This document shows, one piece after another, positions 10,827-60,853 of a stretch of 64,000 nucleotides of DNA. The DNA is from Nocardioides sp. L-11A (GTDB lineage: Bacteria; Actinomycetota; Actinomycetes; Propionibacteriales; Nocardioidaceae). The notes below the pieces were generated by a model. The model made no database searches, was not told where the DNA came from, and saw only the letters and a list, made by a program, of their open reading frames with translations. Location: NCBI GenBank assembly GCA_029961745.1, contig CP124680.1, forward strand, positions 620,001 through 684,000. The letters are read 5' to 3'. A program made the position numbers and the translations under genes. Within the stretch, counting starts at the first letter, position 1; each line of letters opens with the position of its first letter.

Positions 10827-10887
10827 GGTTCACCTACCGGATTTGTCGTCCGACCGGCCTCGCGACGACGAATTCGGTAGGTGAACC
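10827..10887. terminator. Long inverted repeat at convergent junction
   Basis: Two 24-base arms (10827-10850 and 10864-10887) pair at 22 of 24 positions around a 13-base loop; the outer end reads GGTTCACCTACCG / CGGTAGGTGAACC. It begins 2 bp after a stop codon and ends 14 bp before the convergent gene's stop, so it probably terminates both. No U-tract follows, as is common in high-GC actinobacteria. Confidence 0.7.
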
Positions 10888-20206: not shown

Positions 20207-21700
20207 TTGTCCTTCGACGTCCACCAGCTCGACACGTTCCTGCTGATCGGCGCCGGGGTCACGTTCCTGGCCGTGTTGGCCGTGCGGATGTCGTCCGGGG
20301 TCGGCCTGCCCAGTCTTCTCGTCTACCTGCTCATGGGCGTCGCCCTCGGCGAGTCCGGTCTGGGCATCGGCTTCGAGGACGCCCAGCTCGCCCACGCGAT
20401 CGGCTTCGGCGCCCTCGCGGTGATCCTCGCCGAGGGTGGTCTGACGACGAGCTGGCGTGACGCCCGGCCCGCGATGCGCATGGGCGTGTCCCTCGCCACC
20501 GTCGGCGTGCTGATCTCGATCGCGGTGGTCGCGGTGGGGGCCCACTTCCTGCTGGGGCTGTCCTGGCAGCTGGCCATCCTGCTCGGTGCCGTCTGCTCCC
20601 CGACCGACGCCGCGGCGGTCTTCTCGGTGCTGCGCGTGGTCCCGCTCCCCAAGCGGATCACCGGCACGCTGGAGGCCGAGTCCGGCCTCAACGACGCGCC
20701 GACGGTCGTGCTCGTGACCCTGGTGTCGTCCGGTGCCGTCGGCGAGTACGGCCTGCTCGGCACCACGGGCATCGTCGTCTACGAGCTCGTCGCCGGCGTC
20801 GCGTTCGGCCTCGCCGCCGGCTTCGGGGGTGCCTGGGTGATGCGGCGCGTGGCGCTGCCGTCGTCCGGCCTCTACCCGATCGCGGTGCTCTGCCTGACCC
20901 TGATCGGCTACGGCACCGCGGCGGCGGTGCATGCCAGCGGCTTCGCCGCGGTGTACGTCGCCGCGCTCGTGCTCGGCAACGCCGACCTGCCGCACCGCGC
21001 CGCCACGCGGTCCTTCGTGGAGGGTCTGGCCTGGCTGGCCCAGATCGGGCTGTTCGTGATGCTCGGCCTGCTGCTCTCGCCCGGGCGCCTCTCGTGGGAG
21101 ACCATCGGCATGGCGGTCGTCGCCGGCACCGTCCTCACCTTCGTGGCCCGGCCGCTGTCGGTCCTGGCGAGTGCCGTCGTCCGGCCGATGAAGCTGCCGG
21201 AGCTCGCCTTCCTCTCGTGGGCCGGACTGCGGGGCGCGGTGCCCATCGTGCTCGCCACCATCCCGCTCGCGGAGGGCGTCGACGGAGCCGATCGGCTGTT
21301 CGACATCGTCTTCGTCCTCGTCGTCCTCGACACCCTGATCACCGCGCCCTCGCTGCCCCTCACCGCCCGGCTGCTGCGCGTCGCGCGCCGCTCGGAGCCG
21401 CGCGGCATCGAGGTCGAGGCGGCTCCCCTCGAACGGGTCGCCGCCGACCTGCTCCAGATCACGATCAGCCCGGCGTCGCGGCTGCACGGCGTCGAGGTGG
21501 GTGAGCTGCGGCTGCCGGTCGGCGCCAATGTGTCGATGGTGGTGCGGGAGGGGCACACGATGGTGCCCGAGCGGCGTACCGTGCTGCGCCACGGCGACGA
21601 CCTCATCGTCGTCACCCCCCGCAAGCTGCGGGAGGCCACCGAGCGGCGGCTGCGCCAGGTCAGCGACGGCGGCCGGCTCGCGCAGTGGCTCGAGGACTGA
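20207..21700 (+). CDS. Potassium/proton antiporter, CPA1 family with TrkA-C domain
   Basis: 497 residues from a TTG at 20207 (GGAAG about 12 bases upstream). About 12-13 membrane segments fill residues 8-385, with the family's ion-site signatures SPTDAAAVFS and ESGLNDAP near 130-170. The cytosolic tail (about 410-480) is a TrkA-C/RCK-C-type domain (LHGVEVGELRLPVGANVSMVVREG). This layout matches NhaP2/CvrA-type K+/H+ antiporters that export K+ and respond to a nucleotide or ligand through the tail. It ends next to a tandem-repeat terminator region. Confidence 0.9.
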   Translation: MSFDVHQLDTFLLIGAGVTFLAVLAVRMSSGVGLPSLLVYLLMGVALGESGLGIGFEDAQLAHAIGFGALAVILAEGGLTTSWRDARPAMRMGVSLATVGVLISIAVVAVGAHFLLGLSWQLAILLGAVCSPTDAAAVFSVLRVVPLPKRITGTLEAESGLNDAPTVVLVTLVSSGAVGEYGLLGTTGIVVYELVAGVAFGLAAGFGGAWVMRRVALPSSGLYPIAVLCLTLIGYGTAAAVHASGFAAVYVAALVLGNADLPHRAATRSFVEGLAWLAQIGLFVMLGLLLSPGRLSWETIGMAVVAGTVLTFVARPLSVLASAVVRPMKLPELAFLSWAGLRGAVPIVLATIPLAEGVDGADRLFDIVFVLVVLDTLITAPSLPLTARLLRVARRSEPRGIEVEAAPLERVAADLLQITISPASRLHGVEVGELRLPVGANVSMVVREGHTMVPERRTVLRHGDDLIVVTPRKLREATERRLRQVSDGGRLAQWLED

Positions 21701-21794
21701 CCCGGCGCATCTGAACGTGCTGGGACCGCCGACCCGGCGCATCTGAACCTACTGGGACCGCCGACCCGGCGCATCTGAACGTGCTGGGACCGCC
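21699..21794. repeat. Three tandem copies of a 32-bp unit
   Basis: The unit GACCCGGCGCATCTGAAC plus 14 further bases is repeated at 21699, 21731 and 21763; the middle copy differs by two to three bases. The first copy starts in the antiporter stop codon. The 5' part of the unit recurs in inverted orientation at 29513-29532, beside another convergent gene pair. Confidence 0.85.
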
Positions 21795-21822
21795 GACCCG
21801 GCGCGTTCAAACGCGCCGGGTC
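21795..21822. terminator. GACCCGGCGCGTT hairpin, convergent terminator
   Basis: Perfect 13-bp arms around a 2-base loop (CA), directly after the third 32-bp repeat and 14 bp before the convergent gene's stop. The same hairpin, with loop TG, is present at 29473-29500. Confidence 0.8.
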
Positions 21823-21835
21823 GATGCGCACCGGG

Positions 21836-22383: not shown

Positions 22384-22680
22384 CTAGCCCTCCATCCGGA
22401 TCACGCGTGCATGCAGGACGTGCCGCTGCTGCAGCGCGGCGCGCAGGGCGCGGTGCAGCCCGTCCTCGAGGTAGTAGTCGCCGCGCCAGAGCACGACGTG
22501 CGCGAAGAGGTCGCCGAAGAAGGTCGAGTCCTCGTCGAGCAGGGACGACAGCTGCAGGGTGTCCTTGGTCGTGACCAGCTGGTCCAGCCGGACCTGGCGC
22601 GGCGGCACCGCGGCCCACCCCTTGGAGGTGAGGCCGTGGTCGGGGTAGGGACGCCCGTCGCCCACGCGCTTGAAGATCAC
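22384..22680 (-). CDS. Small conserved protein, VapB-like in name only
   Basis: 98 residues from a GTG at 22680 (MIFKRVGDGRPYPDHGL). From memory, this family is often labelled as a VapB-type antitoxin in actinobacterial annotations, but no VapC PIN-domain gene is adjacent. The sequence (PPRQVRLDQLVTTKDTLQL, then YYLEDGLHRALRAALQQR) has no clear ribbon-helix-helix. It is consistently compact, basic and soluble, and its partner here is a LytR_C membrane protein. I regard a toxin-antitoxin role as unsupported. Confidence 0.72.
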   Translation of the reverse strand: MIFKRVGDGRPYPDHGLTSKGWAAVPPRQVRLDQLVTTKDTLQLSSLLDEDSTFFGDLFAHVVLWRGDYYLEDGLHRALRAALQQRHVLHARVIRMEG

Positions 22681-22711
22681 GGCTTCGGAGTCTACGGGGC
22701 GTGCCGCACAC

Positions 22712-22801
22712 GGATTCATCACGGGATGTAGGTGAATTGCCGCTTCCCTGGTCGAACTCCGCTACAGATGCTCCTTTTCGTCTACATCCCGTGATGAATC
22801 C
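22712..22801. repeat. Long inverted repeat with 20-bp perfect arms (family member 1)
   Basis: Arms 22712-22731 and 22782-22801 (GGATTCATCACGGGATGTAG and its complement) flank 50 bases. The same arm sequence recurs at 34655-34674. The interior shares CGCTTCCC and GAACTCCGC with that copy. It lies between divergent starts (22680 and 22830), so it is not an ordinary terminator. Confidence 0.85.
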
Positions 22802-22829
22802 GCCGCCAACGGCGCCTAGAGTGCCCCGC

Positions 22830-24422
22830 ATGACGCAGGAGCAGAAAGCCGCCGCAGAGGGCCCGGTCGCCAAGAGCCCCATCGAGCAGGCGATCGCCCC
22901 CGGGTACGCCTTCGAGGGCCCGGCGCTCGAGTTGGGCGGACTGATGACCGGCCCCGACGAGCTGTCGGCGAGCACGATCCGGATCCCGCTCGCGATGCTG
23001 AACCGCCACGGCCTGGTGGCGGGCGCGACCGGCACCGGCAAGACGAAGACGCTGCAGCTGATGGCCGAGCAGCTCAGCGCCGCCGGCGTCCCCGTCTTCG
23101 CCGCGGACATCAAGGGCGACCTGTCCGGCCTCGCCACCACCGGTGAGGCCAACGACAAGCTGCTGGCGCGCACGGAGTCGGTCGGGCAGGACTGGACGGC
23201 GACCGCCTTCCCGGTGGAGTACTACGCGCTGGGCGGGCAGGGCATCGGCATCCCGATCCGGGTGACCGTGTCGTCGTTCGGGCCGATCCTGCTCAGTCGG
23301 GTGCTCGGGCTCAACGACACCCAGGAGTCCAGCCTCGGCCTGGTGTTCCACTACGCCGACAAGCAGGGCCTGCCGCTGCTCGACCTGCAGGACCTGCGGG
23401 CCGTGGTCCAGCACCTGACCAGCGCTGAGGGCAAGGGCGATCTCAAGGAGCTCGGCGGCCTCTCCTCGGCCACGGCAGGCGTGATCCTGCGGGAGCTGAT
23501 CGCGTTCGCCGACCAGGGCGCGGAGGCGTTCTTCGGCGAGCCGGAGTTCGACTCGGCCGATCTGCTGCAGCATGCCGCCGACGGGCGCGGCCTGGTCAAC
23601 CTGGTCGAGCTGCCCAACCTGCAGGACCGCCCGGCGATCTTCTCGACCTTCCTCATGTGGCTGCTCGCCGACCTCTTCCACGACCTCCCCGAGGTCGGCG
23701 ACATCGACCAGCCCAAGCTGGTGTTCTTCTTCGACGAGGCCCACCTGCTGTTCAAGGACGCGTCCAAGCCGTTCCTCGAGCAGATCGCCCAGACGGTGCG
23801 GCTGATCCGGTCGAAGGGCGTCGGCGTCTTCTTCGTGACGCAGAGCCCCACCGACGTACCCGACGACGTGCTCGCCCAGCTCGGCTCCCGGATCCAGCAC
23901 CAGCTGCGGGCGCACACCCCCAACGACGCCAAGGCGCTCAAGGCGACCGTCAACACCTACCCCAAGAGCGCGTACGACGACCTGGGCGAGGTGATCACGA
24001 CGCTCGGGATCGGCGAGGCGATCGTCACGGTCATGGGCGAGAAGGGCGCCCCGACGCCGGTCGCCTGGACCCGGCTGCGTGCGCCCGAGTCGCTGATGGC
24101 GCCGAGCAGCGCAGAGTCGATGGAGGCGACGGTCGCGGCCAGTCCGCGGCAGGCGAAGTACGCCGAGGTCGTCGACCGCGAGTCGGCCCGGGAGATCCTC
24201 GCGAAGAAGCTCGAGGAGGGTGCGCAGGCCGAGGCCGCCGAGAAGGCTGAGAAGCCCGCCGCCAAGGGCAAGGCGGCGCCCAAGGCCAGGAAGGACGACG
24301 GCGGCGGCGCGGGCGAGATCGTCAAGGACGTCGTGAAGTCCTCGGCGTTCAAGCAGTTCATGCGTACCGCGGCGGCCGAGATCGCCCGCGGCATGTTCGG
24401 GACGGCGCGCCGCCGCCGCTGA
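22830..24422 (+). CDS. DUF853 / HerA-like ATPase
   Basis: 530 residues from the ATG at 22830. Walker A GATGTGKT (65-72), Walker B LVFFFDEAHLLF (near 302) and a sensor-like FFVTQSPTDVPDDVLAQLGSRIQHQLRAHT place it in the DUF853 family of HerA/FtsK-type NTPases. The C-terminal 110 residues are an Ala/Lys-rich, probably disordered linker followed by a short basic helix (ASP-free FKQFMRTAAAEIARGMFG). A DNA or protein translocation or remodelling role is inferred from the superfamily. It stands alone and ends at a clean hairpin. Confidence 0.9.
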   Translation: MTQEQKAAAEGPVAKSPIEQAIAPGYAFEGPALELGGLMTGPDELSASTIRIPLAMLNRHGLVAGATGTGKTKTLQLMAEQLSAAGVPVFAADIKGDLSGLATTGEANDKLLARTESVGQDWTATAFPVEYYALGGQGIGIPIRVTVSSFGPILLSRVLGLNDTQESSLGLVFHYADKQGLPLLDLQDLRAVVQHLTSAEGKGDLKELGGLSSATAGVILRELIAFADQGAEAFFGEPEFDSADLLQHAADGRGLVNLVELPNLQDRPAIFSTFLMWLLADLFHDLPEVGDIDQPKLVFFFDEAHLLFKDASKPFLEQIAQTVRLIRSKGVGVFFVTQSPTDVPDDVLAQLGSRIQHQLRAHTPNDAKALKATVNTYPKSAYDDLGEVITTLGIGEAIVTVMGEKGAPTPVAWTRLRAPESLMAPSSAESMEATVAASPRQAKYAEVVDRESAREILAKKLEEGAQAEAAEKAEKPAAKGKAAPKARKDDGGGAGEIVKDVVKSSAFKQFMRTAAAEIARGMFGTARRRR

Positions 24423-24445
24423 GCCTGGATCCACGGATCCAGGCT
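24422..24445. terminator. Hairpin terminator between convergent genes
   Basis: AGCCTGGATCC-AC-GGATCCAGGCT, a perfect 11-bp stem with a 2-base loop, starting in the stop codon of the DUF853 gene and ending 21 bp before the convergent small gene. Confidence 0.8.
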
Positions 24446-24466
24446 GAGCCCACGGGCCCGAGCGGA

Positions 24467-24700
24467 TCAGGCCGTCCAGCGGATGGCGTCGTCGACGAAG
24501 TCGGCGAGCTGGTTCACACCGCGCAGGTCGGTGCGCTGGTCCATCAAGCGCGAGAGCCCCTGGGCGTGCCGGTGGCGCAGGGCGGAGCGGCGGGCGAGCG
24601 AGCGGTCCACGGCGTCGAGGGCGTCCACGGCGTCGAGGTCGTCGACCGGCTCGAGGTGACGTCCTGCGGTCCGGGTCTCAGCGGAGGTCGTCTGGTTCAT
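24467..24700 (-). CDS. Small hypothetical protein
   Basis: 77 residues, charged, with a repeated DAVDALDAVD stretch (about 22-31) and an Arg-rich middle. GGAGG lies immediately before the ATG, closer than usual. No domain recognised; coding potential is plausible because the terminator lies at its 3' end and no stronger frame competes. Confidence 0.5.
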   Translation of the reverse strand: MNQTTSAETRTAGRHLEPVDDLDAVDALDAVDRSLARRSALRHRHAQGLSRLMDQRTDLRGVNQLADFVDDAIRWTA

Positions 24701-24777
24701 GCCTCCAGCCTGCGCCGGACAGGTTTCCGACGCTCGGCGCTGCGGTTACGACTCGGTGACCCGGCCTGTGAGCCCGG

Positions 24778-24917
24778 CGACACCACCGTCCGGACACCAC
24801 CGTCCGGACACCACCGTCCGGACACCACCGTCCGGACACCGCCGTCCGGACACCGCCGTCCGGGCTCAGGCGTCCGGGCTCAGGCGTCCGGGCTCAGGCG
24901 TCCGGGCTCAGGCGCCG
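24778..24917. repeat. Ten 14-bp tandem repeats of two alternating types
   Basis: Units of exactly 14 bp: one cgacaccaccgtcc, three ggacaccaccgtcc, two ggacaccgccgtcc, then three gggctcaggcgtcc and one gggctcaggcgccg. All keep the pattern ggnnnnnnncgtcc. The last units run into the 3' end of the gene at 24908 and supply its stop codon. The rest of 24701-24777 shows nothing further. Confidence 0.85.
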
Positions 24918-25189
24918 TCGAACCCGTTGAGCAGCAGGAAGAAGACGGCGACGCCGACCAGCGCGCCGGCCACGCCGAGCCCGGCGCCGAGGAGGAGGCG
25001 GCGGCGCGCGGGCCGCTCCGGAGCGAGGACGGCGCGGCCGAGGACCGCGCCCACGGCAGCGGTGAGCAGCAGCTGGACGGGGATGATGAGGTTCTCGCCC
25101 GTGGCGGAGCCGTCGAGGACGGCAGCGCTCAGCGGCAGCAGGACGCAGCCGACGACGACCAGGGCGACGAACAGGGCCAGGATTCGCAC
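24908..25189 (-). CDS. Small membrane protein
   Basis: 93 residues from GTG 25189. Three hydrophobic segments (about 4-22, 35-52, 66-86) separated by short basic loops (APERPARRR). No family recognised. It begins 4 bp downstream of the metal-receptor-like gene's stop, so the two are probably co-transcribed. Its last codons lie in the 14-bp tandem repeat array. Confidence 0.6.
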   Translation of the reverse strand: MRILALFVALVVVGCVLLPLSAAVLDGSATGENLIIPVQLLLTAAVGAVLGRAVLAPERPARRRLLLGAGLGVAGALVGVAVFFLLLNGFDGA

Positions 25190-25193
25190 GGCG

Positions 25194-25937
25194 TCAGGAT
25201 GACAGCAGGTCGTACGCCTCGACCATCGCCGGTCCGTACCAGGTCAGCAGCCGGCCCGACACCAGCCGGGTCGGCACCCGGGTGAAGGCCTCCGGGCCGT
25301 CGTCGGCGGTGAACACGTACGGCTCGTCCGGCAGCAGCACCAGGTCGAGGTCCGCGGTGTCCAGCGCGGCCAGGTCGACGTGCGGGTACCTGTCCTCGCC
25401 CTCGTCGTAGGCGTGGGTCCAGCCGAGTCGCCGCAACAGGTCGCCGGTGTAGGTGCGTGGGCCGACGACCATCCACGGGTCGCGCCACACGGGTACGGCG
25501 ACCCGGCCGCGCGCTGCCGGTGGCGGACCCGCCCAGCAGGACCGTGCCCGGACCAGCCACGGGGGCGCGGCGAGACCGAGCGCCTCGTCGTACAGACGGG
25601 CGAGGGAGGCGAGCGCCTGCGGCACCGTCTCGATCGCCGTCACCCACACGGGCACACCGGCGTCGCGCAGGCGGCGTACGTCGAGCTCGCGGTTCTCCTC
25701 CTGGTTGGCGACGACCAGGTCGGGGGCGAGGAAGCGGATCGCGGCGAGGTCGGGGTTCTTCGTGCCCCGGACCCGGGTGACGGCCAGCCCGGCCGGGTGG
25801 GTGCACCAGTCGGTGGCGCCGACCAGCCGGTCCGGCACGTCGGTGGCGAGCGCCTCGGTGATCGACGGGACGAGGGACACGATCCGGCGCGCGGGCGCGG
25901 ACAGGGGCAGGTCGTACCCGAGATCGTCGGTGGTCAC
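25194..25937 (-). CDS. Helical-backbone metal receptor-like protein without signal peptide
   Basis: 247 residues from GTG 25937. Sequence pattern of BtuF/helical-backbone periplasmic receptors: RIVSLVPSITEALA, GATDWCTHP, KNPDLAAIRFLAPDLVVANQEENR, and RRLGWTHAY near 160. Receptors of this family bind cobalamin, haem or siderophores for ABC importers. Here no signal peptide or lipobox precedes the domain and no permease or ATPase genes are adjacent, so a cytosolic role or binding without transport is possible. Confidence 0.8.
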   Translation of the reverse strand: MTTDDLGYDLPLSAPARRIVSLVPSITEALATDVPDRLVGATDWCTHPAGLAVTRVRGTKNPDLAAIRFLAPDLVVANQEENRELDVRRLRDAGVPVWVTAIETVPQALASLARLYDEALGLAAPPWLVRARSCWAGPPPAARGRVAVPVWRDPWMVVGPRTYTGDLLRRLGWTHAYDEGEDRYPHVDLAALDTADLDLVLLPDEPYVFTADDGPEAFTRVPTRLVSGRLLTWYGPAMVEAYDLLSS

Positions 25938-25954
25938 CGGCCTATCATCCCCTC

Positions 25955-26302
25955 GTGAACGCGATCTTCGGGTGGTCGGTCCTCGCCCTGGTGTTCGTCG
26001 ACGAGCTGCTGGCCGTGGCCGCCTTCGGCGTCTGGGGCTGGGACCACGACCCCCGCTGGCTGCTGGTCTGGCTGCTCCCTGTCGCGGCGATGGCGGCCTG
26101 GTTCTGCTTCGCCTCCCCGAAGGCGCCGTACGGCGGTGGGCTGGTGCGCCCACTCGTGAAGATCGTCGTCTTCGGCCTGGCCTGCCTGGCGCTGTGGGAC
26201 GCCGGCCACGAGGTCGGGGCGGTCGCGCTGCTCGTCTTCTCGGTGGTCGTCAACGGGCTCGCGCTGCTGCCGAGCATCCGGGTGCTCGTCGACGAGCAGT
26301 AA
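25955..26302 (+). CDS. YrdB/DUF2568 family membrane protein
   Basis: 115 residues from GTG 25955. Four membrane segments, with the family-typical FCFASPKAPYGG between helices 2 and 3. Function of the family is unknown. Divergent from the metal-receptor-like gene (17-bp gap) and 4 bp from the convergent DUF480 gene. Confidence 0.82.
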   Translation: MNAIFGWSVLALVFVDELLAVAAFGVWGWDHDPRWLLVWLLPVAAMAAWFCFASPKAPYGGGLVRPLVKIVVFGLACLALWDAGHEVGAVALLVFSVVVNGLALLPSIRVLVDEQ

Positions 26303-26306
26303 GGCG

Positions 26307-27524
26307 TCAGCGCGGCGTGCGGGCCACGACGTACAGCCGCTCGGTGGTCTCGCCGCGGGCGATGATCGGCCCGCGCCGGTACCACTCGACGTCGACGAGC
26401 CCCGCCCGCTCGACGAGCGCGACGACGTCGGCCGGCTCGTGGAGGACCAGGTCGAGGTCGACCTCGTGGTCGAGCCAGGTGTCGTGGTGGCGCACCTCGG
26501 AGCCGGCGTGGAGGGCGAGGACCAGGAGCCCGCCGGGTCGCATCGGCCGGCTCAGCGCCTCGACCGCCGCGGGCAGCTCGGACGCCGCGAGGTGGATCAG
26601 GGAGTACCAGCCCAGGACGGCCGCCCATCCCGAGCCGTTGACCGGGCGCATGAGGGAGCGCAGGTCGCCGACCTCGTAGACGCCGTCCGGGTAGCGCTCC
26701 CGTGCCAGCGCGACCATCTCGGGCGTGAGATCGAGACCGGTCGCGTCGACGCCCGCGTCGGCGAGGTAGGCGGTGACGTGGCCGGGCCCGCAGCCGACCT
26801 CGACGACGGGGTCGGTGCCGGCGTGCGCGGCGACCCGGTCGAGCAGCCACCGCTCGAAGGGCAGGGCGGCGAGCTCGCCGGTCAGGGCCTCGGCGTACGC
26901 CGTCGCGACAGCGGCGTAGGACGCGCGCACCTTCGCATCCCGGGCCTCGGCACCGCCGGCGAGCACCGCGTCGCGGTCGACGGCCGGGGCCGCCGAGCCG
27001 GACGGGACGGCCGGCAGATCGACGGGCCCGAGGAGGTGGACCCAGCGGGCGTCCTGCTCGCGGGGCTGCTTGGGCAGTTCCTGGACGAGCGGCTGCGCGC
27101 GCTCGGCCAGCCGGCGCAGGCAGGCCTCGACGGCACCACGGTCGGGGAAGGCGTGCAGTCGTTCGGTGCGGGTGCGGAGGGCACCCGGCGGCTGCGGTCC
27201 GCGCAGCAGCAGCACGGTGATCAGGGCCCGCTCGTCGTCGGCGAGGTCGAAGCGCACCGCGAGCTTCTGGAGGTACTTCAGCGTGCGCCGCCCGTGGTCC
27301 TCCCAGGTGACCGCGACGAGGTCGCGCTGCTTGAGGTCGCGCAGCGTGTGGTGCACGAGGTCGTCGTCGTAGTCCACGACCGGCTCACGGCTGCTCTGCT
27401 GGTTGCAGGCGGTGCGCACGGCGGTGACCGTCATCGGGTACGACGCCGGCACGGTCACCTCCTTCTCCAGGAGGCTCCCCAGGACACGCTGCTCCTCGGC
27501 CGTCAGGACGGGCAGGTCGCTCAC
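26307..27524 (-). CDS. DUF480 (YceH-like) domain fused to a SAM methyltransferase
   Basis: 405 residues from GTG 27524. Residues 1-180 are a YceH/DUF480 tandem winged-helix region (LTAEEQRVLGSLLEKEVTVPASYPMT, then ACNQQSSREPVVDYDD). After a linker, a class I methyltransferase domain begins near 235: VVEVGCGPGHVTAYL is the SAM-binding motif I. DUF480 proteins are usually about 200 residues on their own; here the enzyme domain is fused. A DNA-bound methyltransferase or a SAM-responsive regulator are both possible readings. Confidence 0.85.
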   Translation of the reverse strand: MSDLPVLTAEEQRVLGSLLEKEVTVPASYPMTVTAVRTACNQQSSREPVVDYDDDLVHHTLRDLKQRDLVAVTWEDHGRRTLKYLQKLAVRFDLADDERALITVLLLRGPQPPGALRTRTERLHAFPDRGAVEACLRRLAERAQPLVQELPKQPREQDARWVHLLGPVDLPAVPSGSAAPAVDRDAVLAGGAEARDAKVRASYAAVATAYAEALTGELAALPFERWLLDRVAAHAGTDPVVEVGCGPGHVTAYLADAGVDATGLDLTPEMVALARERYPDGVYEVGDLRSLMRPVNGSGWAAVLGWYSLIHLAASELPAAVEALSRPMRPGGLLVLALHAGSEVRHHDTWLDHEVDLDLVLHEPADVVALVERAGLVDVEWYRRGPIIARGETTERLYVVARTPR

Positions 27525-27550
27525 GGTGCCGAACCCTACCGAGTCACGGC

Positions 27551-28048
27551 TCAGCGCAGGGCGAGGCAGCCCGAGGTGGTGGGCTCCCAGGGGATCGAGG
27601 CGTGCTCGGCGACCCGCTCGTCGAGCCCGGCGGCGACGTCGCCGGGCCAGGGCGCGGTCTTCCGGTCGGCCAGCTCGACGCACAGGAAGATCTCCTCGAA
27701 CACGCAGGCCACCCGCTGGTTGGTGTCGTCGAGGATGAAGACGAGCGCGTGGGCGGCGCGCTCGGAGCGGCCCAGCAGCCGGACCCGTACCGACATCTGG
27801 TCGCCGGTCCTGAGCTCGTGCAGATAGGTCAGGTGGTGCTCGGCCGACAGGCACGCGAAGCCGCTGAGCATCGGCCAGTTGAACGGGATGCCGATGTCGT
27901 AGAGCGACTCGTCCAGGCCCTCGCTGCCGATGCCGAGGTAGTGCCGGACGTTGAGGAAGCCGTTGCTGTCCTCGAAGGCGCTGGGGACCGGCTGGACGGC
28001 GAAGGCCGGCAGGGTGACGAGCTGGTCGTACGTCGGCTGGGTGCTCAT
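27551..28048 (-). CDS. Hotdog-fold thioesterase
   Basis: 165 residues. The order (DSNGFLNVRHYLG near 28, then FACLSAEHHLTYLHELRTGDQMSVRVRLLG) fits the 4HBT/acyl-CoA thioesterase group with an Asn/Asp in the first loop. It would hydrolyse an acyl-CoA or acyl-ACP. It sits 26 bp upstream of the DUF480-methyltransferase gene in the same direction, so co-transcription is likely. Confidence 0.82.
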   Translation of the reverse strand: MSTQPTYDQLVTLPAFAVQPVPSAFEDSNGFLNVRHYLGIGSEGLDESLYDIGIPFNWPMLSGFACLSAEHHLTYLHELRTGDQMSVRVRLLGRSERAAHALVFILDDTNQRVACVFEEIFLCVELADRKTAPWPGDVAAGLDERVAEHASIPWEPTTSGCLALR

Positions 28049-28190
28049 GCCGGGACCCTACTGAATCGGGCTCCGGATTGGTCGCGGCCCGGCCCGCGGC
28101 GTACCATCGAAGGACCGATCCACCGCGTGTATCACCTCGCGCCGGCCCACCGGCGGTCCAAGGCGGCACCTGAGCCCCTGGACGAGGGAC

Positions 28191-29468
28191 ATGCCTGATC
28201 ACTCTCCGACGCTGGTCCGCGCCGCCGGCCCGTCGTACTTCCCGATCGCGCTCGTCGCGCGGCTGCCCTACGCGATGATGGTCGTCGGGGTGCTGACGCT
28301 GGTCGTCGCCGGGCGGGACTCGCTCGCCTTCGGCGGCTTGAACTCCGCCGTCGTCGGCCTCGGCGCGGCGTGTGTCGGGCCCTTGCTCGGCGCCGCCGCG
28401 GACCGGTTCGGCCAGCGCCGGGTGCTGCTGGCCAGCGGCGTCGCGTCGACGACGGCGCTCGGCCTGATGGCGTGGGTCGTCTACAGCCCGCTGCCGGGTA
28501 CCGCGGTGCTCGCCGTCGCCTTCCTGGTGGGTGCCAGCGCCCCGCAGATCGCGCCGATGTCGCGCAGCCGGCTGGTCCAGATCATCGGCGCCCGGATCGC
28601 CCCCGACCGCCGCTCGCGGACCTTCGACGCCACGATGGCCTACGAGTCGGCGGCGGACGAGCTCGTCTTCATCGTCGGCCCGTTCGTGGTCGGTCTCCTC
28701 GGCACGACCCTCGACCCCTGGGCACCGGTCGCCGGCGCCGCGGTGCTCACCCTGGTCTTCGTGACCGCGTTCGCCCTGCACCCGTCGGCCCGCGCCGCGG
28801 CGGGCCGCGACGAGCGTGCGGCGCTGCCGGCCCCTGCACGGGAGATCGCCCGCCCGGCGCTGCTGGCCGTGGTCGCCGGCATCTTCGGTGTCGGGCTCTT
28901 CTTCGGCTCGATGCTCACCTCGCTCACGTCGTTCATGTCCGACCACGGCAGCACCGAGTCCGCCGGCCTGGTGTACGGCGTGATGGGCGTCGGCTCCGCA
29001 GCCTTGGCCCTCGGCGTGGCGCTGTTCCCGGCCTCCTTCTCGCTGCGTGCGCGCTGGCTGGTGTTCGGCACCACGATGCTCGTCGGCGCCGCCCTGCTGC
29101 CGTTCGCGTCGTCGGTCGCGTCGATGTGTGCCGTCCTGCTGGTCATCGGCTGCGGCATCGGGCCGACGATGGTCACCCAGTACAGCCTCGGCGCGCTGCG
29201 CAGCCCGGTCGGCCGCTCCGCGACCGTGATGACGATCCTCGGCTCGGCCGTGATCGTCGGGCAGTCGCTCTCGTCCGCGGTGACCGGCAACCTGGCCGAC
29301 CGCTTCGGTACGGACGCCGCGCTGGTGATGCCGATCGTCGCGGCCGCGGTCGTCGTCCTGGCGGGCGTCGTCAACGGGGTGCTGTCACGCCCGGCTCCGG
29401 CGTCCCCCGGGCCGGCTCCGTCGGAACTCGAGATCGCGCCGACCCGGCCCGTGCTCACGTCGAACTGA
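28191..29468 (+). CDS. Major facilitator superfamily transporter
   Basis: 425 residues, 12 predicted membrane helices in two six-helix halves. The loop 2-3 motif appears as GAAADRFGQRRVLL near 66, and a degenerate copy GNLADRFG near 364 in the second half, as in drug and sugar-efflux MFS proteins. Start ATG 28191 has GAGGG 3-7 bases upstream. Substrate unknown. It ends at a terminator shared with the convergent hydroxylase operon. Confidence 0.85.
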   Translation: MPDHSPTLVRAAGPSYFPIALVARLPYAMMVVGVLTLVVAGRDSLAFGGLNSAVVGLGAACVGPLLGAAADRFGQRRVLLASGVASTTALGLMAWVVYSPLPGTAVLAVAFLVGASAPQIAPMSRSRLVQIIGARIAPDRRSRTFDATMAYESAADELVFIVGPFVVGLLGTTLDPWAPVAGAAVLTLVFVTAFALHPSARAAAGRDERAALPAPAREIARPALLAVVAGIFGVGLFFGSMLTSLTSFMSDHGSTESAGLVYGVMGVGSAALALGVALFPASFSLRARWLVFGTTMLVGAALLPFASSVASMCAVLLVIGCGIGPTMVTQYSLGALRSPVGRSATVMTILGSAVIVGQSLSSAVTGNLADRFGTDAALVMPIVAAAVVVLAGVVNGVLSRPAPASPGPAPSELEIAPTRPVLTSN

Positions 29469-29472
29469 CACC

Positions 29473-29500
29473 GACCCGGCGCGTTTGAACGCGCCGGGTC
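29473..29500. terminator. GACCCGGCGCGTT hairpin, convergent terminator (second copy)
   Basis: Perfect 13-bp arms and 2-base loop TG, the same stem as 21795-21822. Followed at 29513-29532 by an inverted copy of the first 20 bases of the 32-bp unit found at 21699. Confidence 0.8.
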
Positions 29501-29534
29501 GACGTCTCTCAGACGTTCAGATGCGCCGGGTCGA

Positions 29535-31127
29535 TCAGAACAGGTCGGGAACGGTCCAGCCGTCGAGGTCGTACTCGCCGAGGAACTCGTCGGCGAAGCC
29601 CTTCATCTGGTCGACGATGCCCCGGTTCTGGGCGGCGAAGAGCAGCTCGGCCTTCACGTTCTCGTGGTTGCCGGAGTAGTTGCGCTCGTACAGCTCGTGC
29701 CGGCCGCCGAACTCGGAGCCGATCGAGTCCCACAGCGCCTTCATCACCTTGACCCGGTCCACGGCGGTGATGCCGTTGGAGCCGCGGACGTACTTGTCGA
29801 GGTAGGGGCGGACCTCGGCGGACTTGAAGTCGGCGGCACCGGAGGGCAGGTAGATCAGGCCGGAGGCGACGTCCTGCTCGATGATCTCCTTGACCCGCGG
29901 ATAGCCGTGGATCATGAACATCCGGTAGGTCAGGCCGTACTCGAGCTTCGGGATGACGGCGTCGCCGACCCACGGCTCGGGGTCGCGGGCCATCGACTCG
30001 GTGAGCGACCAGAACAGGTTGCGCCAGCCGATCACCTCGCCGACCCGGGTCTGCACGCCGCGGAAGTCGCCGGAGCCGGTGGTCTCCAGCGCCTTCATCA
30101 GCAGGCCGGCGATGAAGTCGAGCTTGACCGCGAGCCGCGTGCAGCCCTGGAAGGTGAACCGGGGCAGGAAGCCGGACTGCGGGAAGAAGGCGTTGATCCG
30201 GTCGACGTCGCCGTACATGAAGACGTTCTCCCAGGGCACGAGCACCTTGTCGAAGACGAAGATGGTGTCGTTCTCGTCCATCCGGCTCGACAGCGGGTAG
30301 TCGAAGGGCGTGCCGTTCTTCGCGGCCTGCTCGGTGTACGACGAGCGGCAGATCAGCTTGATGCCGGGGGCGTCCATCGGCACGGTGCAGATCAGGGCGA
30401 ACTGCTTCTTGCGGATCGGCAGGCCGTAGTGGGCGATGAAGTTGTAGTTGGTGATCGCCGACCCGGTCGCGACCACCTTGGCGCCGGAGACGACCAGGCC
30501 GGCGTCGGTCTCCTTCTCGACCTTCATGTAGACGTCGCCGACCTCGTCCGGCGGCAGGTTGCGGTCGACCGGCGGGTTGATGATCGCGTGGTTCCAGTAG
30601 AGGACCTTCTCCTGCGACTCGCGGTACCACCGCTCGGCGTTGTCCTGGAACGGCGCGTAGAGCTCCTTGTTGGCGTGCAGCGTGCCGAGGAAGCTGGCCT
30701 TGTAGTCGGGGCTGCGGCCCATCCAGCCCCACGTCATCTTCGCCCAGCGGGCGATCGCGTCGCGCTCCTTGAGCAGGTCGGCCGACGAGGTCGGGGTCTT
30801 GAAGAAGGGCATCGTCACGCCGCCGTTGCCGGTGTCGGTGGGCACGGTGAGCTCGTCGACGTGCGGGCCGGTGTGCAGGGCGTCGTACAGTCGGGCGGTC
30901 ATCCGGATCGGGTTGCGGAACGCCGGGTGCGTGGTGACGTCCTTCACCCGCTCGCCGTGGAGGTAGATCTCCCGGCCGTCGCGGAGGCTCTCGATGTACT
31001 CGTCGCCGGTCATCGGCCGCGACGCGAAGTTGGTCTGCTGGTTGGCCGGCGCTCCGGCGGCCGGGTTGACGGTGGGCGGGCCGTCGTCCGGTACGGCGGC
31101 GGTCTCGGGGGCGAGGGTGTCGGTCAT
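29535..31127 (-). CDS. 4-hydroxyphenylacetate 3-hydroxylase-type flavin monooxygenase (HpaB family)
   Basis: 530 residues. The acyl-CoA-dehydrogenase-like fold of HpaB shows in [26 protein letters not shown] (about 36-61) and in [25 protein letters not shown] mid-protein, close to the flavin site. The family ortho-hydroxylates phenols using FADH2 delivered by a separate reductase. The reductase gene is 10 bp upstream in the same operon. Length is typical. Substrate is a phenol or related aromatic, not resolved. Divergent AraC regulator upstream. Confidence 0.9.
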
Positions 31128-31137
31128 CGGGATCTCC

Positions 31138-31719
31138 TCAGTAGTGGGTGTCGGCCGGGACGAGCGCCCGTCCGTGGTGGGTGGGTGCGAACTCGGTGGT
31201 CGCGTCGAACCAGCCGGTGTGGGGGTCGTCCTGGCAGCCGAGCCACACGACGTCGGACGAGCGGCTGCCGATCTGGTGGAAGGCGCTGTCGTGGAACAGC
31301 AGGGGCGGGCGGCCGGTCGTGAGCACGTCGACGACCTCGCCGAGGAACAGCAGGTGGTCGCCGCCGTCGTCGACCCGCCACGGGCGGCAGGTGAGGGTGG
31401 CCGCCGTGCCCCGCAGGGTCGGCGCCGTCGTACCGTCGCACCAGGGGAGCGGGTCGGGGCTCGGCCGCCCCGCGAAGTGCATGGCGACGTCGACCTGGTC
31501 GCTGGCCAGGACGTTGACCGCGAAGGCGGCGCCGTCGAGGTACTGCGCCGCCTTCGAGGTGCGGGTCAGCGCCACCTGGACCAGGGGCGGGTCCAATGAG
31601 ATCGGTGTGAACGCGGTGACGGTCGCACCGTGATGGGCGCCGTCCGGTGTCCGGCAGGTGATCACGGTGACGCCGGTCGCGAAGCGGCCGAAGGTCGACC
31701 GCAGGGTGCGCGGGTCCAT
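31138..31719 (-). CDS. Flavin reductase (HpaC-like)
   Basis: 193 residues. N-terminal split-barrel flavin reductase motif [13 protein letters not shown], then [26 protein letters not shown] with the flavin-binding Ser/Thr loop, as in HpaC and related FMN/FAD reductases. It reduces free flavin with NAD(P)H for the HpaB-type oxygenase encoded next. It starts 210 bp from the divergent AraC gene. Confidence 0.9.
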
Positions 31720-31825
31720 GGTGGCTCCTCCGTCGGGCTCGGGAACCGCCGGTGATGGCGGTCACGGTGAGCCGGGACGCTAGGCCGGTACGACGGTCCC
31801 GGCGATCCACTCGGCGAAGGCCCTG

Positions 31826-31866
31826 TCCGGATTGCGCACCGGGTTGGATCGGGTGCGTTTTCCGGA
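31826..31866. promoter_or_regulatory. Composite inverted repeat between the flavin-hydroxylase operon and AraC gene
   Basis: Outer TCCGGA (31826-31831 and 31861-31866) and inner CGCACC / GGTGCG (31835-31840 and 31852-31857) form a 41-bp symmetric element about 107 bp upstream of the reductase start and 63 bp before the AraC start. Likely operator of the AraC regulator for both directions. Confidence 0.55.
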
Positions 31867-31928
31867 TCACGGAGTTCGCCTACTGTGAGGGTCATCACGT
31901 CATGCGCCGCGGCGGAAGGGGGTCGGCC

Positions 31929-32864
31929 ATGAGCGCCATCGGGACCGTCTCCGCGTCCTCCGACGAGCTCGGCGACTTCTCCGACGCCGTCGCCCGCGCG
32001 TACTTCCCCCATCGGCTGCTGGTGAAGGGACGCGCGACCGGGCCCGCCGACCTGCGGGCCGTCGATCTCGGCCCGGTGCGGCTGGCCCGGATCGGCTGGG
32101 GCTCGGAGGTCTCCGTCGAGTCCGACCACCCCGAGGCCTGGGCGGTCAACGTGCCGCGCAGCGGCGTGCTGGAGGCGCAGATCGGGGCGCACCACGTGCT
32201 CTCCCTCGACGGGCAGGCGACGGTCTGCCCGCCCGACGAGGAGACCCGGATGACCCGCTGGTCGGCCGACTGCTCGATCGTCGGGATGCGCGTGGACCGG
32301 GCCTATCTCGTCGAGGAGGTGGCGGCCCTCGTCGGCCTCCACACCGACCGGCTGCCCGCCCAGCTCGACCTGCGCACCGACAGCGGCCGGGCCTGGATCG
32401 GGCTGCTCGCCTCGATCGGCACCGAGGCCCTGCGCAACCCCGCCCTGGCCCGCGACGACCGGGTCGCCCGCCGGCTCGCGGCCACCCTCACCGCGGCCTT
32501 CGTCGCCGCCTCCTTCCCCGAGGAGCCCGGCTGTGGCTCGATCCGGCCGCGGATCGTCTCCCGGGTCGTCGAGGCGATCGAGGCCGACCCCGCCCGCGAC
32601 TGGACCGCCGCCGAGCTCGCCCGTGAGTCCGGCGTCGGCATCCGCCGGCTCCAGCAGGGCTTCCAGCGCTACCTCGGCCACACCCCGACCCAGCACCTGC
32701 TCGGCGTCCGCCTCGCACGGGTGCACGCCGACCTGCTCGCCACGACCGAGGGCAGCGTCGCCGACATCGCCAGCCGGTGGGGCTTCGCCCACCTCGGCCG
32801 CTTCGCGGCGTCCTACCGCGAGCGGTACGGCGTGGCGCCGTCGGTCACCCTGCGCGGGCGCTAG
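31929..32864 (+). CDS. AraC family transcriptional regulator
   Basis: 311 residues. N-terminal AraC_binding_2-like sensor region (about 1-180) and a C-terminal double helix-turn-helix (about 215-305; WTAAELARESGVGIRRLQQGFQRYLG, then IASRWGFAHLGRFAASYRERYG). The ATG at 31929 is preferred over the one at 31902 because GGAAGGGGG lies just upstream. Divergent from the hydroxylase/reductase operon, which it probably activates in response to the aromatic substrate. Its 3' end overlaps the convergent sigma factor gene by 20 bp. Confidence 0.9.
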   Translation: MSAIGTVSASSDELGDFSDAVARAYFPHRLLVKGRATGPADLRAVDLGPVRLARIGWGSEVSVESDHPEAWAVNVPRSGVLEAQIGAHHVLSLDGQATVCPPDEETRMTRWSADCSIVGMRVDRAYLVEEVAALVGLHTDRLPAQLDLRTDSGRAWIGLLASIGTEALRNPALARDDRVARRLAATLTAAFVAASFPEEPGCGSIRPRIVSRVVEAIEADPARDWTAAELARESGVGIRRLQQGFQRYLGHTPTQHLLGVRLARVHADLLATTEGSVADIASRWGFAHLGRFAASYRERYGVAPSVTLRGR

Positions 32865-34137
32865 CGGTCGCCGCCCGCCGTTCCAGCAGGGCGCGCTCGT
32901 CCGCGTTGCGCGTCCGCGCCGCCGCCTCGGTGAACGCCGCTGCCGCCTCGGCGTGCCGACCGGCCCGCTCGAGCAGGTCGCCGCGGACGCCGGGAAGCAG
33001 CGGCGAGTCGCGCAGCGCGTCGTCCGGCAGTCCGGCCAGCACCGCGAGCCCGGCGTCGGGACCGGCGGCGCGGCCGTGCGCCACCGCGCGGTTGACCTCC
33101 ACGACCGGTCCCGGCGCGGCCTCCGCGAGGACGTCGTAGAGCCGGGCGATCCGGGACCAGTCGGTGGCTGCCGGCGTGGCTGCCCGAGCGTGCTCGGCGG
33201 CGATCGCCGCCTGGAGGTAGTACCGCCCGACCGGTACGCCGCGCGCGGCGATCTCCTCGGCGCGCGCGAGCGCGACCAGTCCGCGGCGGATGAGCAGCTC
33301 GTCCCAGCGGCCGCGGTCCTGGTCGTCGAGCAGCACCGGCGCTCCGGCGGCGTCGGTGCGGGCGGGCAGCCGGGAGCCCTGGAGCTCGAGCAGGGCCTGC
33401 AGGCCGTGCACCTCGGGCTCGTCGGGTGCGAGCCCGGCCAGCAGCCGGGCCAGCCGGATCGCCTCCGCCACGAGGTCGGGCCGGGTCCAGTCGTCACCGG
33501 CCGTGGCGACGTACCCCTCGGTGAAGACGAGGTAGACGACGGCCATCACATCGTCGAGCCGCTCGGTGCGCTCGGCGCCGGTCGGTAGCTCCAGCTGGGC
33601 GCCGGCGTCGGCGAGGGTGCGCTTGGCGCGCGAGATCCGCTGACCCATCGTGGCGTCGGGCACCAGGAAGCCGCGCGCGATCTCGGTGGTGGTCAGGCCG
33701 CCGACCAGGCGCAGCGTCAGCGCCGCGCGCGACTCGGGCGTGAGCGCGGGGTGGCAGCACAGGAAGATCAGCCGCAGGACGTCGTCCTCGATGTGGTCCA
33801 CCTGGGCGTCCAGGTCGGGCATCGCGCTCACCTCCCCGGCCGCCTGGGCGGCGTGGCCGAGCTCCTCGGTCTTGCGACGCAGCGTCTCGGCACGCCGGAT
33901 GTGGTCGATCCCGCGGCGCTTGGCGGTGGTCATCAGCCAGGCCGCCGGATTGTCGGGAACGCCCGTGCCGGGCCACTGCTCGAGGGCGGCGACCAGAGCG
34001 TCCTGCGCCAGGTCCTCGGCGAGCTCGACGTCCCGGGTCATCCGCGCCAGCGCGCCGACCAGACGCGCCGACTCGAGCCGCCAGGTGGCGGTGATCGCGT
34101 CGGTGGTGATCGCGTCGGCGGTGGTGGCGTCGGCCAT
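32845..34137 (-). CDS. ECF42-type RNA polymerase sigma factor with C-terminal extension
   Basis: 430 residues, more than twice a normal ECF sigma factor. Sigma2 (about 20-90, RMTRDVELAEDLAQDALVAALEQW) and sigma4 (about 130-180, LRLVGGLTTTEIARGFLVPDATMGQRISRAK) are followed by the DUF6596/TPR-like extension of the ECF42 group (LVFTEGYVATAGDDWTRPDL onwards). ECF42 factors have no anti-sigma factor; the extension is thought to regulate them. They are typically encoded beside DGPF/YCII proteins, and one lies 53 bp upstream here. Confidence 0.9.
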   Translation of the reverse strand: MADATTADAITTDAITATWRLESARLVGALARMTRDVELAEDLAQDALVAALEQWPGTGVPDNPAAWLMTTAKRRGIDHIRRAETLRRKTEELGHAAQAAGEVSAMPDLDAQVDHIEDDVLRLIFLCCHPALTPESRAALTLRLVGGLTTTEIARGFLVPDATMGQRISRAKRTLADAGAQLELPTGAERTERLDDVMAVVYLVFTEGYVATAGDDWTRPDLVAEAIRLARLLAGLAPDEPEVHGLQALLELQGSRLPARTDAAGAPVLLDDQDRGRWDELLIRRGLVALARAEEIAARGVPVGRYYLQAAIAAEHARAATPAATDWSRIARLYDVLAEAAPGPVVEVNRAVAHGRAAGPDAGLAVLAGLPDDALRDSPLLPGVRGDLLERAGRHAEAAAAFTEAAARTRNADERALLERRAATASARAG

Positions 34138-34190
34138 GCGGCCAGCCTAGGGAGTCACTCCCCGGCCGGCCGCATGGCGCAGCGCCGGGG

Positions 34191-34574
34191 TCAGGCGTCG
34201 TCCAGGGTCGGCCCCTCGTCCGCGACCTGGCGCAGGCTGGCGACCATCGAGCACTCGGGCCAGTGCTTCGCGTGCAGGTCGGCGAACTCCTGCTGATTGG
34301 CGATCGCCTCGTCGAGGGTGTCGAACTGCAGCAGCGCCCAACCCCCCACGGCCTCGCGGGCCTCGGCGTAGGGCCCGTCGACCCGGGTGACCTCGCCCTT
34401 GCGGACCACGAAGTTCACGGCGTCCTCGAGGCCGAACAGCCCGCCGCCGTCGAGGAAGTGGCCCTGCTGGGCCTGCTCGCCGATGTAGCTCTCCATCGCG
34501 TCGAACAGCGCCTTCGGCGGGTTGCCCTGGCCCTCTTCCATCCGCACGAATCCCATGAAACGCGGCATCGTCAT
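34191..34574 (-). CDS. DGPF/YCII-related protein
   Basis: 127 residues. The DGPF-type motif is DGPY (66-69, VDGPYAEAREAVGGW), with the YCII-like ferredoxin-fold flanks (MPRFMGFV; ALLQFDTLDEAI). The biochemical role of DGPF proteins is not established; they co-occur with ECF42 sigma factors, which is the case here (the sigma gene starts 53 bp downstream, same strand). Confidence 0.85.
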   Translation of the reverse strand: MTMPRFMGFVRMEEGQGNPPKALFDAMESYIGEQAQQGHFLDGGGLFGLEDAVNFVVRKGEVTRVDGPYAEAREAVGGWALLQFDTLDEAIANQQEFADLHAKHWPECSMVASLRQVADEGPTLDDA

Positions 34575-34655
34575 CAGTCCTTCGGTTCGTTGGTGGGTGA
34601 CTTACGAACCTACGTCGAACGGCTGTTGCGGGTTTCGACATCGCGCCGGGAACTG

Positions 34656-34740
34656 ATTCATCACGGGATGTAGGCGAGCGGTCGCTTCCCATGCGGAACT
34701 CCGCCCGGGAAGCGCGGATTCGCCTACATCCCGTGATGAA
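34656..34740. repeat. Long nested inverted repeat (family member 2)
   Basis: Arms 34657-34676 and 34721-34740 pair perfectly over 20 bases (TTCATCACGGGATGTAGGCG and its complement); a second stem inside pairs CGCTTCCC (34683-34690) with GGGAAGCG (34707-34714). The arm GATTCATCACGGGATGTAGG is identical to that at 22713-22732. It separates two same-strand genes. Confidence 0.85.
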
Positions 34741-34758
34741 GCCGCAGCCGGAACGCCG

Positions 34759-51657: not shown

Positions 51658-51766
51658 TGTAACACGCTGTCCACTCGACTGGTCGCCGGTTCTCCGCGGA
51701 AATCGCCCGGAATCAGCCGGATTTCTGCTGACAATCGCCAGGTAGTCAGGTGGACAGCGTGTTACA
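51658..51766. terminator. Long inverted repeat at convergent junction
   Basis: TGTAACACGCTGTCCAC (51658-51674) pairs perfectly with 51750-51766 across a 75-base interior that holds smaller stems. It fills the space between convergent stops and probably terminates both transcripts. Confidence 0.75.
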
Positions 51767-60778: not shown

Positions 60779-60853
60779 CGTTGAGTTGCCGCAAACTCAC
60801 CGTTCAGTTGCGCAGAGGTGGCAACTCGACGGTGAGGAAGGGGCAACTCAACG
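60779..60853. terminator. Three-tier nested inverted repeat at convergent junction
   Basis: Three concentric stems: CGTTGAGTTGCC (60779-60790 with 60842-60853), CTCACCGT (60796-60803 with 60829-60836) and AGTTGC (60806-60811 with 60821-60826). It begins 3 bp after the E2 stop and ends 41 bp before the convergent gene. Confidence 0.75.

What the first reader, a model, noticed from the sequence alone, without database searches (positions are those of the whole stretch)
22712..34740. Two long inverted repeats share the same 20-bp arm: a dispersed intergenic element
The arm GATTCATCACGGGATGTAGG occurs at 22713-22732 and 34655-34674, each paired with its complement 50-60 bp away, and the interiors share CGCTTCCC and GAACTCCGC. 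One copy lies between divergent starts, the other between same-strand genes, so termination alone does not explain them. They may be a small mobile or regulatory element, or encode a structured RNA.
Basis: seen in the sequence. Interest (0 to 1): 0.7.

Follow-up and report, generated by a model that had tools for sequence, protein, structure and literature searches.

The report
Palindromic repeats paired with nuclease-like gene
The two look-alike inverted repeats belong to a family of exact-length DNA palindromes scattered between genes, and a gene for a DNA-binding, nuclease-like protein sits between two copies of it; related genes are usually bracketed by a different repeat of their own, a layout otherwise known to me from an unrelated enzyme.

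Summary
The window genome, a Nocardioides, holds 27 copies, all with arm starts 67 bp apart. The element is three palindromes in a row (P-I-P, about 94 bp), intergenic and mostly just behind gene ends. Arms stay conserved at orthologous sites while flanks diverge, and arm spelling differs between genomes. The key lies outside the window: the gene at G000 C1:1722466-1723416 sits between two copies. Its product joins an AbiEi-like half to a predicted Vsr / homing-endonuclease-like fold. In 24 of 30 close-subfamily loci both flanks carry the element. Of 73 homologue loci, three G000 paralogues included, 60 share repeat words between their flanks (next-out flanks 0 of 73), and repeat similarity rises with protein similarity. 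One paralogue's repeat is dispersed too, with a copy in the window (51658-51766). The layout resembles REPIN-RAYT, but the RAYT family was found in 0 of 40 element-bearing genomes. Best reading: an unrelated repeat-nuclease system whose protein binds, and probably cuts and copies, its element. Binding, cutting and copying are inferred.

The parts
22703..22810 (.). P-I-P element, copy 1 (family 1), between divergent genes
   Evidence: covariance-model match of 90.6 bits over positions 1-108; 17-bp arms at 22715-22731 and 22782-22798
22715..22731 (+). left arm P core TTCATCACGGGATGTAG
22741..22772 (.). central imperfect palindrome I (CGCTTC...GGA/TCC...GAAGCG type)
   Evidence: half-site consensus from 44 aligned copies; bounds inferred from it
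22782..22798 (-). right arm P core
34645..34752 (.). P-I-P element, copy 2 (family 1), between two minus-strand genes
   Evidence: covariance-model match of 103.1 bits over positions 1-108
34657..34673 (+). left arm P core
34683..34714 (.). central imperfect palindrome I
   Evidence: bounds inferred from the half-site consensus
34724..34740 (-). right arm P core
51658..51766 (.). element of a second, independent family (arm GTAACACGCYGTCCACC, arm starts 90 bp apart) whose cognate gene is a paralogue at G000 C1:4345662-4346561; between convergent genes by my gene prediction

Best explanation
The two inverted repeats are copies of a chromosomal palindromic element (P-I-P, about 94 bp, fixed length) that belongs to a repeat-nuclease pair. 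The partner is one gene elsewhere in the chromosome, bracketed by two copies of the element; it encodes an AbiEi-type winged-helix protein fused to a domain predicted to have the Vsr / I-Bth0305I endonuclease fold. SHOWN: dispersal, exact length, 3'-end placement, arm conservation, pairing of repeat and gene, purifying selection on the gene, predicted fold. INFERRED: the AbiEi-like half binds the P arms at their rigid spacing (about 0.8); the nuclease-like half nicks or cuts DNA at the element (about 0.65); the break is repaired from another copy, which homogenises arms within a genome, preserves length and sometimes seeds a new copy, as is proposed for RAYT and REPINs (about 0.5).
Confidence: 0.7

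Rival explanations
1. The elements are operators: the AbiEi-type protein is a repressor that controls its own gene and a regulon through dispersed P-I-P sites.
For: AbiEi binds inverted repeats and autoregulates (PMC3985639, passages); elements flank the gene; copy 1 in the window lies between two divergent starts.
Against: 8 of 115 oriented copies are between divergent genes, 24.3 expected from intergenic base pairs; in tandem gene pairs 47 of 52 copies are nearer the 3' end of the upstream gene. Elements flank the gene downstream as well as upstream. The nuclease-like half is unexplained.
Confidence: 0.12
2. The elements are bidirectional transcription terminators or mRNA 3'-end stabilisers that share a sequence for that reason.
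For: Median distance 29 bp from gene 3' ends, 55 of 115 between convergent genes. At clpX-valS, G014 and G216 show by eye a hairpin of terminator type where G000 has the element-gene-element unit.
Against: Termination needs neither exact length nor conserved arm sequence; most interior columns are not paired above expectation; by eye no T tract follows the arms; direct-arm copies cannot form the long hairpin; it does not explain the cognate gene. It could be a side effect.
Confidence: 0.08
3. Self-marking or defence: the nuclease-like protein attacks DNA lacking, or carrying, the element, and genomic copies serve as protection or decoy sites.
For: AbiEi models of PADLOC match the N-terminal part (best E 1.4e-12 and 1.1e-18 for the two proteins scanned); AbiE systems are abortive-infection loci (PMC3985639, abstract and passages).
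Against: Only one gene lies between the two elements in the five two-sided units read; the scan of viral contigs confirmed no relative of the gene; dispersed 3'-end placement is unexplained.
Confidence: 0.06
4. Ordinary MITEs of an unrelated insertion sequence; the cognate gene is a passenger.
For: Patchy presence at the window site among relatives; palindromic ends; dispersed copies. Transposase families other than PF01797 were not searched for.
Against: The same gene family is bracketed by different repeats in many genomes, which a passenger would not be. No clean target-site duplication.
Confidence: 0.04

Closest known systems
REPIN-RAYT (REP doublets with a Y1 HUH transposase, TnpA-REP)
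   Same: Invariant 16-17-mers in inverted pairs at a fixed distance (71 bp for GI REPINs in PMC3116915, passages; 67 bp here), extragenic, one cognate gene with its own repeat in its flanks, more than one repeat family in one genome, arms more alike within than between genomes.
   Different: PF01797 is in 0 of 40 element-bearing genomes. The cognate protein has a predicted AbiEi + Vsr-like fold instead. A third, central palindrome is present; some genomes have direct arms.
AbiEi antitoxins / AbiE type IV toxin-antitoxin
   Different: No partner gene between the two elements in the five two-sided units read; an added nuclease-like domain; repeats dispersed over the genome.
Vsr endonuclease and the Vsr-like homing endonuclease I-Bth0305I
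   Different: Fused to an AbiEi-like half; free-standing chromosomal gene bracketed by palindromes; cleavage and mismatch repair not shown.
Other intergenic palindromes such as ERIC, Correia elements, RUP (recalled, no call)
   Same: Short dispersed intergenic palindromes.
   Different: I recall no dedicated cognate gene of this kind for those.

Membership tests
REPIN-RAYT | conserved 16-17-mer in inverted pairs at a fixed spacing, extragenic | tested here: met
   27 of 27 copies at 67 bp; 118 of 119 examined copies do not overlap a predicted gene by more than 20 bp
REPIN-RAYT | repeat lies in the flanks of one cognate gene | tested here: met
   24 of 30 loci both sides, but the gene is not a RAYT
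REPIN-RAYT | RAYT (Y1 HUH transposase, PF01797) in the genome | tested here: not met
   0 of 40 element-bearing genomes; the same search rings in 5 of 14 control genomes; also 0 in G000
REPIN-RAYT | excision or transposition intermediates | not testable with these tools
   needs sequencing reads
AbiE type IV toxin-antitoxin | AbiEi winged-helix protein | tested here: met
AbiE type IV toxin-antitoxin | bicistronic with an AbiEii toxin gene | tested here: not met
   single gene between the two elements in the five two-sided units read (L009, L070, L104, L186, L230)
Vsr-like endonuclease | Vsr-like catalytic fold | tested here: met
Vsr-like endonuclease | catalytic residues in place | tested here: inconclusive
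   E204, E248, D250, K254 invariant in 39 sequences, D237 nearly so; not superposed on Vsr
Vsr-like endonuclease | cuts or nicks DNA at its site | not testable with these tools
   needs biochemistry
MITE of an insertion sequence | target-site duplication on insertion | tested here: inconclusive
   two sites compared with relatives lacking the element; spacers too diverged, no clean duplication seen
structured RNA (Rfam) | match to a described RNA family | tested here: inconclusive
   no match at gathering score in the window; absence does not exclude an RNA
structured RNA | compensatory changes in the proposed helix | tested here: inconclusive
   most interior pairs at column expectation; within a genome the two arms, the base beside them and the inner half-sites match better than shuffled (9, 2 and 17 of 2000 permutations reach the observed value), the spacer does not (1997 of 2000)

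The most novel reading that the evidence does not exclude
A class of repeat-nuclease systems spread through the actinobacterial phylum and unrelated to RAYT: each AbiEi-Vsr-like protein is dedicated to its own palindromic repeat family, several orthogonal pairs share one genome, and cleavage-driven copying by the protein spreads and homogenises the repeats. A large part of the homologous proteins (1633 clusters at E <= 1e-10 among those scored; where a source names them, mostly 'type IV toxin-antitoxin system AbiEi family antitoxin domain-containing protein' or hypothetical) would then be repeat-maintenance nucleases, not antitoxins.
Probability: 0.5. Interest if true: 0.92.

Novelty: categorically new. 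Interest (0 to 1): 0.85.

Why it matters
Bacterial intergenic palindromes are common, but a dedicated trans-acting gene is, as far as I found, described for one class only (REP with RAYT). A second pairing built on an unrelated protein would show that repeat plus single-copy nuclease is a recurring way of life for chromosomal repeats. It gives a testable function to a large protein family now named after an antitoxin, and offers protein-DNA pairs whose specificity can be read off the arm dialects. The resemblance to REPIN-RAYT is one of organisation: the RAYT family was searched for and not found, and the cognate protein's predicted fold is another one, which is why I mark it as new in kind rather than as a variant; a reader who counts by organisation would call it a new variant. 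Prior art outside the open library searched is not excluded.

Tried and rejected

Literature, open PMC library only, listings unless said otherwise: the arm string (0 papers); Nocardioides palindromic repeats; REPIN/RAYT (3 papers; PMC3116915 read in passages); AbiEi/DUF559/palindromic (36 papers hold two terms, 15 listed; PMC3985639 read in passages); RAYT in actinobacteria; DUF559 with inverted repeats (333 hold two terms, 12 listed); REP/AbiEi/DUF559/Vsr (PMC12907096 read in passages); REPIN with actinomycetes; I-Bth0305I with Vsr; AbiEi with homing endonuclease. Nothing on a repeat-AbiEi pairing in the titles, abstract starts and passages that I saw.
Full report
WHAT IS IN THE WINDOW. Copy 1 lies between divergent genes, copy 2 between two minus-strand genes. 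The covariance model built later finds two family-1 elements in the window at E <= 1, 22703-22810 and 34645-34752.

COPIES IN THE GENOME. The genome (G000, one contig, 5.68 Mb) has 51 arm matches with up to 2 mismatches and 0 for the reversed-pattern control. With 3 arms of 3 mismatches they form 27 elements, and in all 27 the arm starts are exactly 67 bp apart; none of the 51 is solitary. Forty-four copies (27 from G000, 9 from G033, 7 from G014, 1 from G010) align over 108 columns without a gap. The half-element reads GCGGn-TTCA[T/C]CACGG[G/T]ATGTAG-GCGAA-n4-C[G/A]CTTC[T/C]nnnG[C/T]GGA, then its mirror image. Exact matches of the arm pair in the species collection are all Nocardioides (28 of 28 stretches).

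ANATOMY. Across genomes the arm is itself a palindrome or near-palindrome, clearest in more distant relatives, and a third palindrome sits in the middle: P-I-P. In 44 copies most interior columns pair no better than composition predicts, with exceptions (columns 45/64: 0.70 against 0.49; 46/63: 0.59 against 0.49), and 'CTTCTG' and 'CTTCCC' halves mix within one copy. Among 92 copies of exact length (10 of other lengths and the 17 non-G000 rows of the first alignment left out), the two arms of an element match better than arms shuffled within the genome (9 of 2000 permutations reach the observed value), as do the base beside the arm (2 of 2000) and the inner half-sites (17 of 2000); the spacer does the opposite (1997 of 2000). 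So there is some left-right coupling, which pairing, a shared reader or conversion could each cause. In eight genomes (G008, G204, G200, G145, G172, G059, G214, G118) gene-flanking copies carry arms in direct orientation, 62 bp apart in 15 of 16 flanks and 124 bp in the other; these cannot fold into the long hairpin. Over all 146 flanks of 73 gene loci the arm-pair scan inverted, 17 direct, 15 both, 54 none. I read the arms as sites for a protein at rigid spacing. G033 also has extra arms in tandem, 32 to 49 bp apart, beside some elements.

PLACEMENT. Of 119 copies examined (44 of the first alignment and 75 of the higher-scoring model matches that I fetched, so biased to well-conserved copies), 1 overlaps a predicted gene by more than 20 bp, 3 have an unknown neighbour, and 115 split 55 convergent, 52 tandem, 8 divergent. 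Intergenic base pairs of the window and 78 loci predict 29.5, 61.2 and 24.3 (p 3e-8; the printout label of 108 loci is wrong, and elements in those 78 loci were not masked). In tandem pairs 47 of 52 copies are nearer the 3' end of the upstream gene. Median distance is 29 bp to a gene 3' end and 68 bp to a start. Genes were called with my own codon-usage script, not a standard caller.

CONSERVATION. In 16 pairs of copies at orthologous positions, arm positions are 94.7% identical (515 of 544), other conserved core positions 89.4% (286 of 320), variable positions 65.8% (316 of 480); gap-optimised flanks 69.5% against 59.1% for shuffled flanks. Arms differ by 1.22 of 17 bases between elements of one genome and 3.55 between genomes: each genome has a dialect. 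So the copies are held in place by selection or by homogenisation; at least those 16 pairs are not fresh insertions.

THE COGNATE GENE. Among neighbours of the 119 elements the largest recurrent protein family was an AbiEi-type one (12 sides, 7 loci, 7 genomes). In five of these loci the gene lies between two elements. In G000 it is C1:1722466-1723416, 317 aa, between clpX and valS. The model R1, run over the 30 close-subfamily loci fetched by protein similarity (the G000 gene included), finds an element on both sides in 24, nearby on one side in 5, and none at E <= 0.01 in 1 (L275); by eye L275, L271 and L268 also carry diverged elements on both sides. Over 215 Nocardioides genomes the close gene (best E < 1e-75, a cut chosen after seeing the scores) and the element co-occur: 47 both, 2 gene only (G088, G137), 38 element only, 128 neither, Fisher p 2e-21. 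At cuts from 1e-105 to 1e-60 p lies between 6.5e-14 and 2e-21, and gene-only genomes rise from 0 to 10. This is not corrected for relatedness. Of 56 genomes with 10 or more model matches 46 have the close gene; of 29 with 1-9 matches 1 has it. Matches per genome were capped at 18, both strands counted. G088 and G137 do have flanking inverted repeats, of another dialect.

IT IS GENERAL. As a test that does not know the dialect I counted 12-mers shared, on either strand, between 420 bp upstream and 420 bp downstream of a gene. Of 50 close-subfamily loci, 39 share 6 or more; of 97 control genes, 3 do, and those 3 are the G000 paralogues (38, 30 and 28% identical) that I had put among the controls. 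Each of them is bracketed by its own, different repeat; for two of the three it is a clear palindrome or inverted repeat. Of 20 further homologues of 38-46% identity, 18 pass. Of 17 homologue loci from other genera, up to other families of the phylum, 12 pass, against 0 of 11 other genes in the same loci; a homologue at E <= 1e-10 was found in 12 of 296 genomes drawn across the phylum, G000 among them. Pooled over the 73 loci in the genus, 60 pass, against 0 of 73 flanks taken further out and 0 of 48 flanks swapped between paralogues of one genome. Repeat words overlap in 30 of 36 locus pairs with protein similarity 0.7 or more, in under 1% of 1366 pairs below 0.4, and in 0 of 22 same-genome pairs, of which only 4 have protein similarity above 0.5; Mantel rho 0.38, 0 of 2000 permutations, not corrected for the species tree (71 of 73 loci usable). 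A second family is dispersed like the first: the arm flanking the 30% paralogue has 56 matches in G000, control 0. From the 20 loci fetched, the paralogue's locus and the window I read 18 arm pairs (two of them overlapping); none is inside a gene or between divergent genes, 13 have spacing 90 or 91, the rest 71 (3), 92 (1) and 51 (1); one is in the window at 51659-51765. Unlike family 1, some arms of family 2 have no partner at that threshold, e.g. in L346. Dispersal of the other two paralogues' repeats was not tested genome-wide. Elements of family 1 also occur in other genera of the order: 20 of 147 genomes, 8 of them outside Nocardioides.

HOW IT PROBABLY WORKS. AbiEi of another species binds two 23-bp inverted repeats (PMC3985639, passages), so the N-terminal half is the likely reader of the P arms; the exact spacing suggests several subunits on one element. 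The C-terminal half would nick or cut there, and repair from another copy would keep length and arms uniform and now and then place a copy elsewhere. Binding, cutting and copying are inference. Behind clpX, G000, G060, G120, G033 and G073 carry the element and the gene (in G073 the gene is in two pieces), whereas G014 and G216 show by eye a hairpin of terminator type and have elements elsewhere but no close gene.

COMPARISON. REPINs (PMC3116915, abstract and passages) are inverted pairs of an invariant 16-mer at fixed distance, extragenic, tied to RAYT genes in whose flanks the 16-mers are found. The layout here is the same; the enzyme is not: PF01797 in 0 of 40 element-bearing genomes. It works like REPIN-RAYT by organisation but is not a member. 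I found no paper describing it in the open library; a Vsr-like DUF559 protein of Caulobacter is known (PMC12907096, passages) but was not linked to repeats in what I read.

Noticed in passing
window 51658-51766: Copy of a second dispersed repeat family (arm GTAACACGCYGTCCACC) whose cognate gene is a paralogue at G000 C1:4345662-4346561.
   Followed up: yes
window 21699-21823 and 29440-29533: A third dispersed repeat: three tandem 32-bp units CGACCCGGCGCATCTGAACG... ending in a palindrome; also near 149-151 kb of G000 (L345, L037, L022). Cognate gene not looked for beyond the loci held.
   Followed up: partly
window 10827-10887 and 60779-60853: Two further strong inverted repeats (24 nt at 92%, 33 nt at 82%); a word of the first also occurs in L035.
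   Followed up: no
window 22680-22830: By eye the stretch holding copy 1 has TAGACT- and TAGAGT-like boxes close to the two starts, suggesting two divergent leaderless promoters with the element between them; the compared gap is 112 bp in G000 and 31 and 45 bp in G144 and G143, which lack the element.
   Followed up: partly
L070, L071, L072, L073, L074, L076 (G033, Nocardioides sp. Root190): Elements extended by extra arms in tandem, 32 to 49 bp apart, on one or both sides.
   Followed up: partly
   Followed up: no
L287, L288, L290 (clpX-valS of G144, G034, G149): The clpX-valS gap holds other repeat-like sequence in several species; in G034 it resembles the repeat flanking the 28% paralogue of G000. 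It may be a hotspot for such repeats.
   Followed up: no
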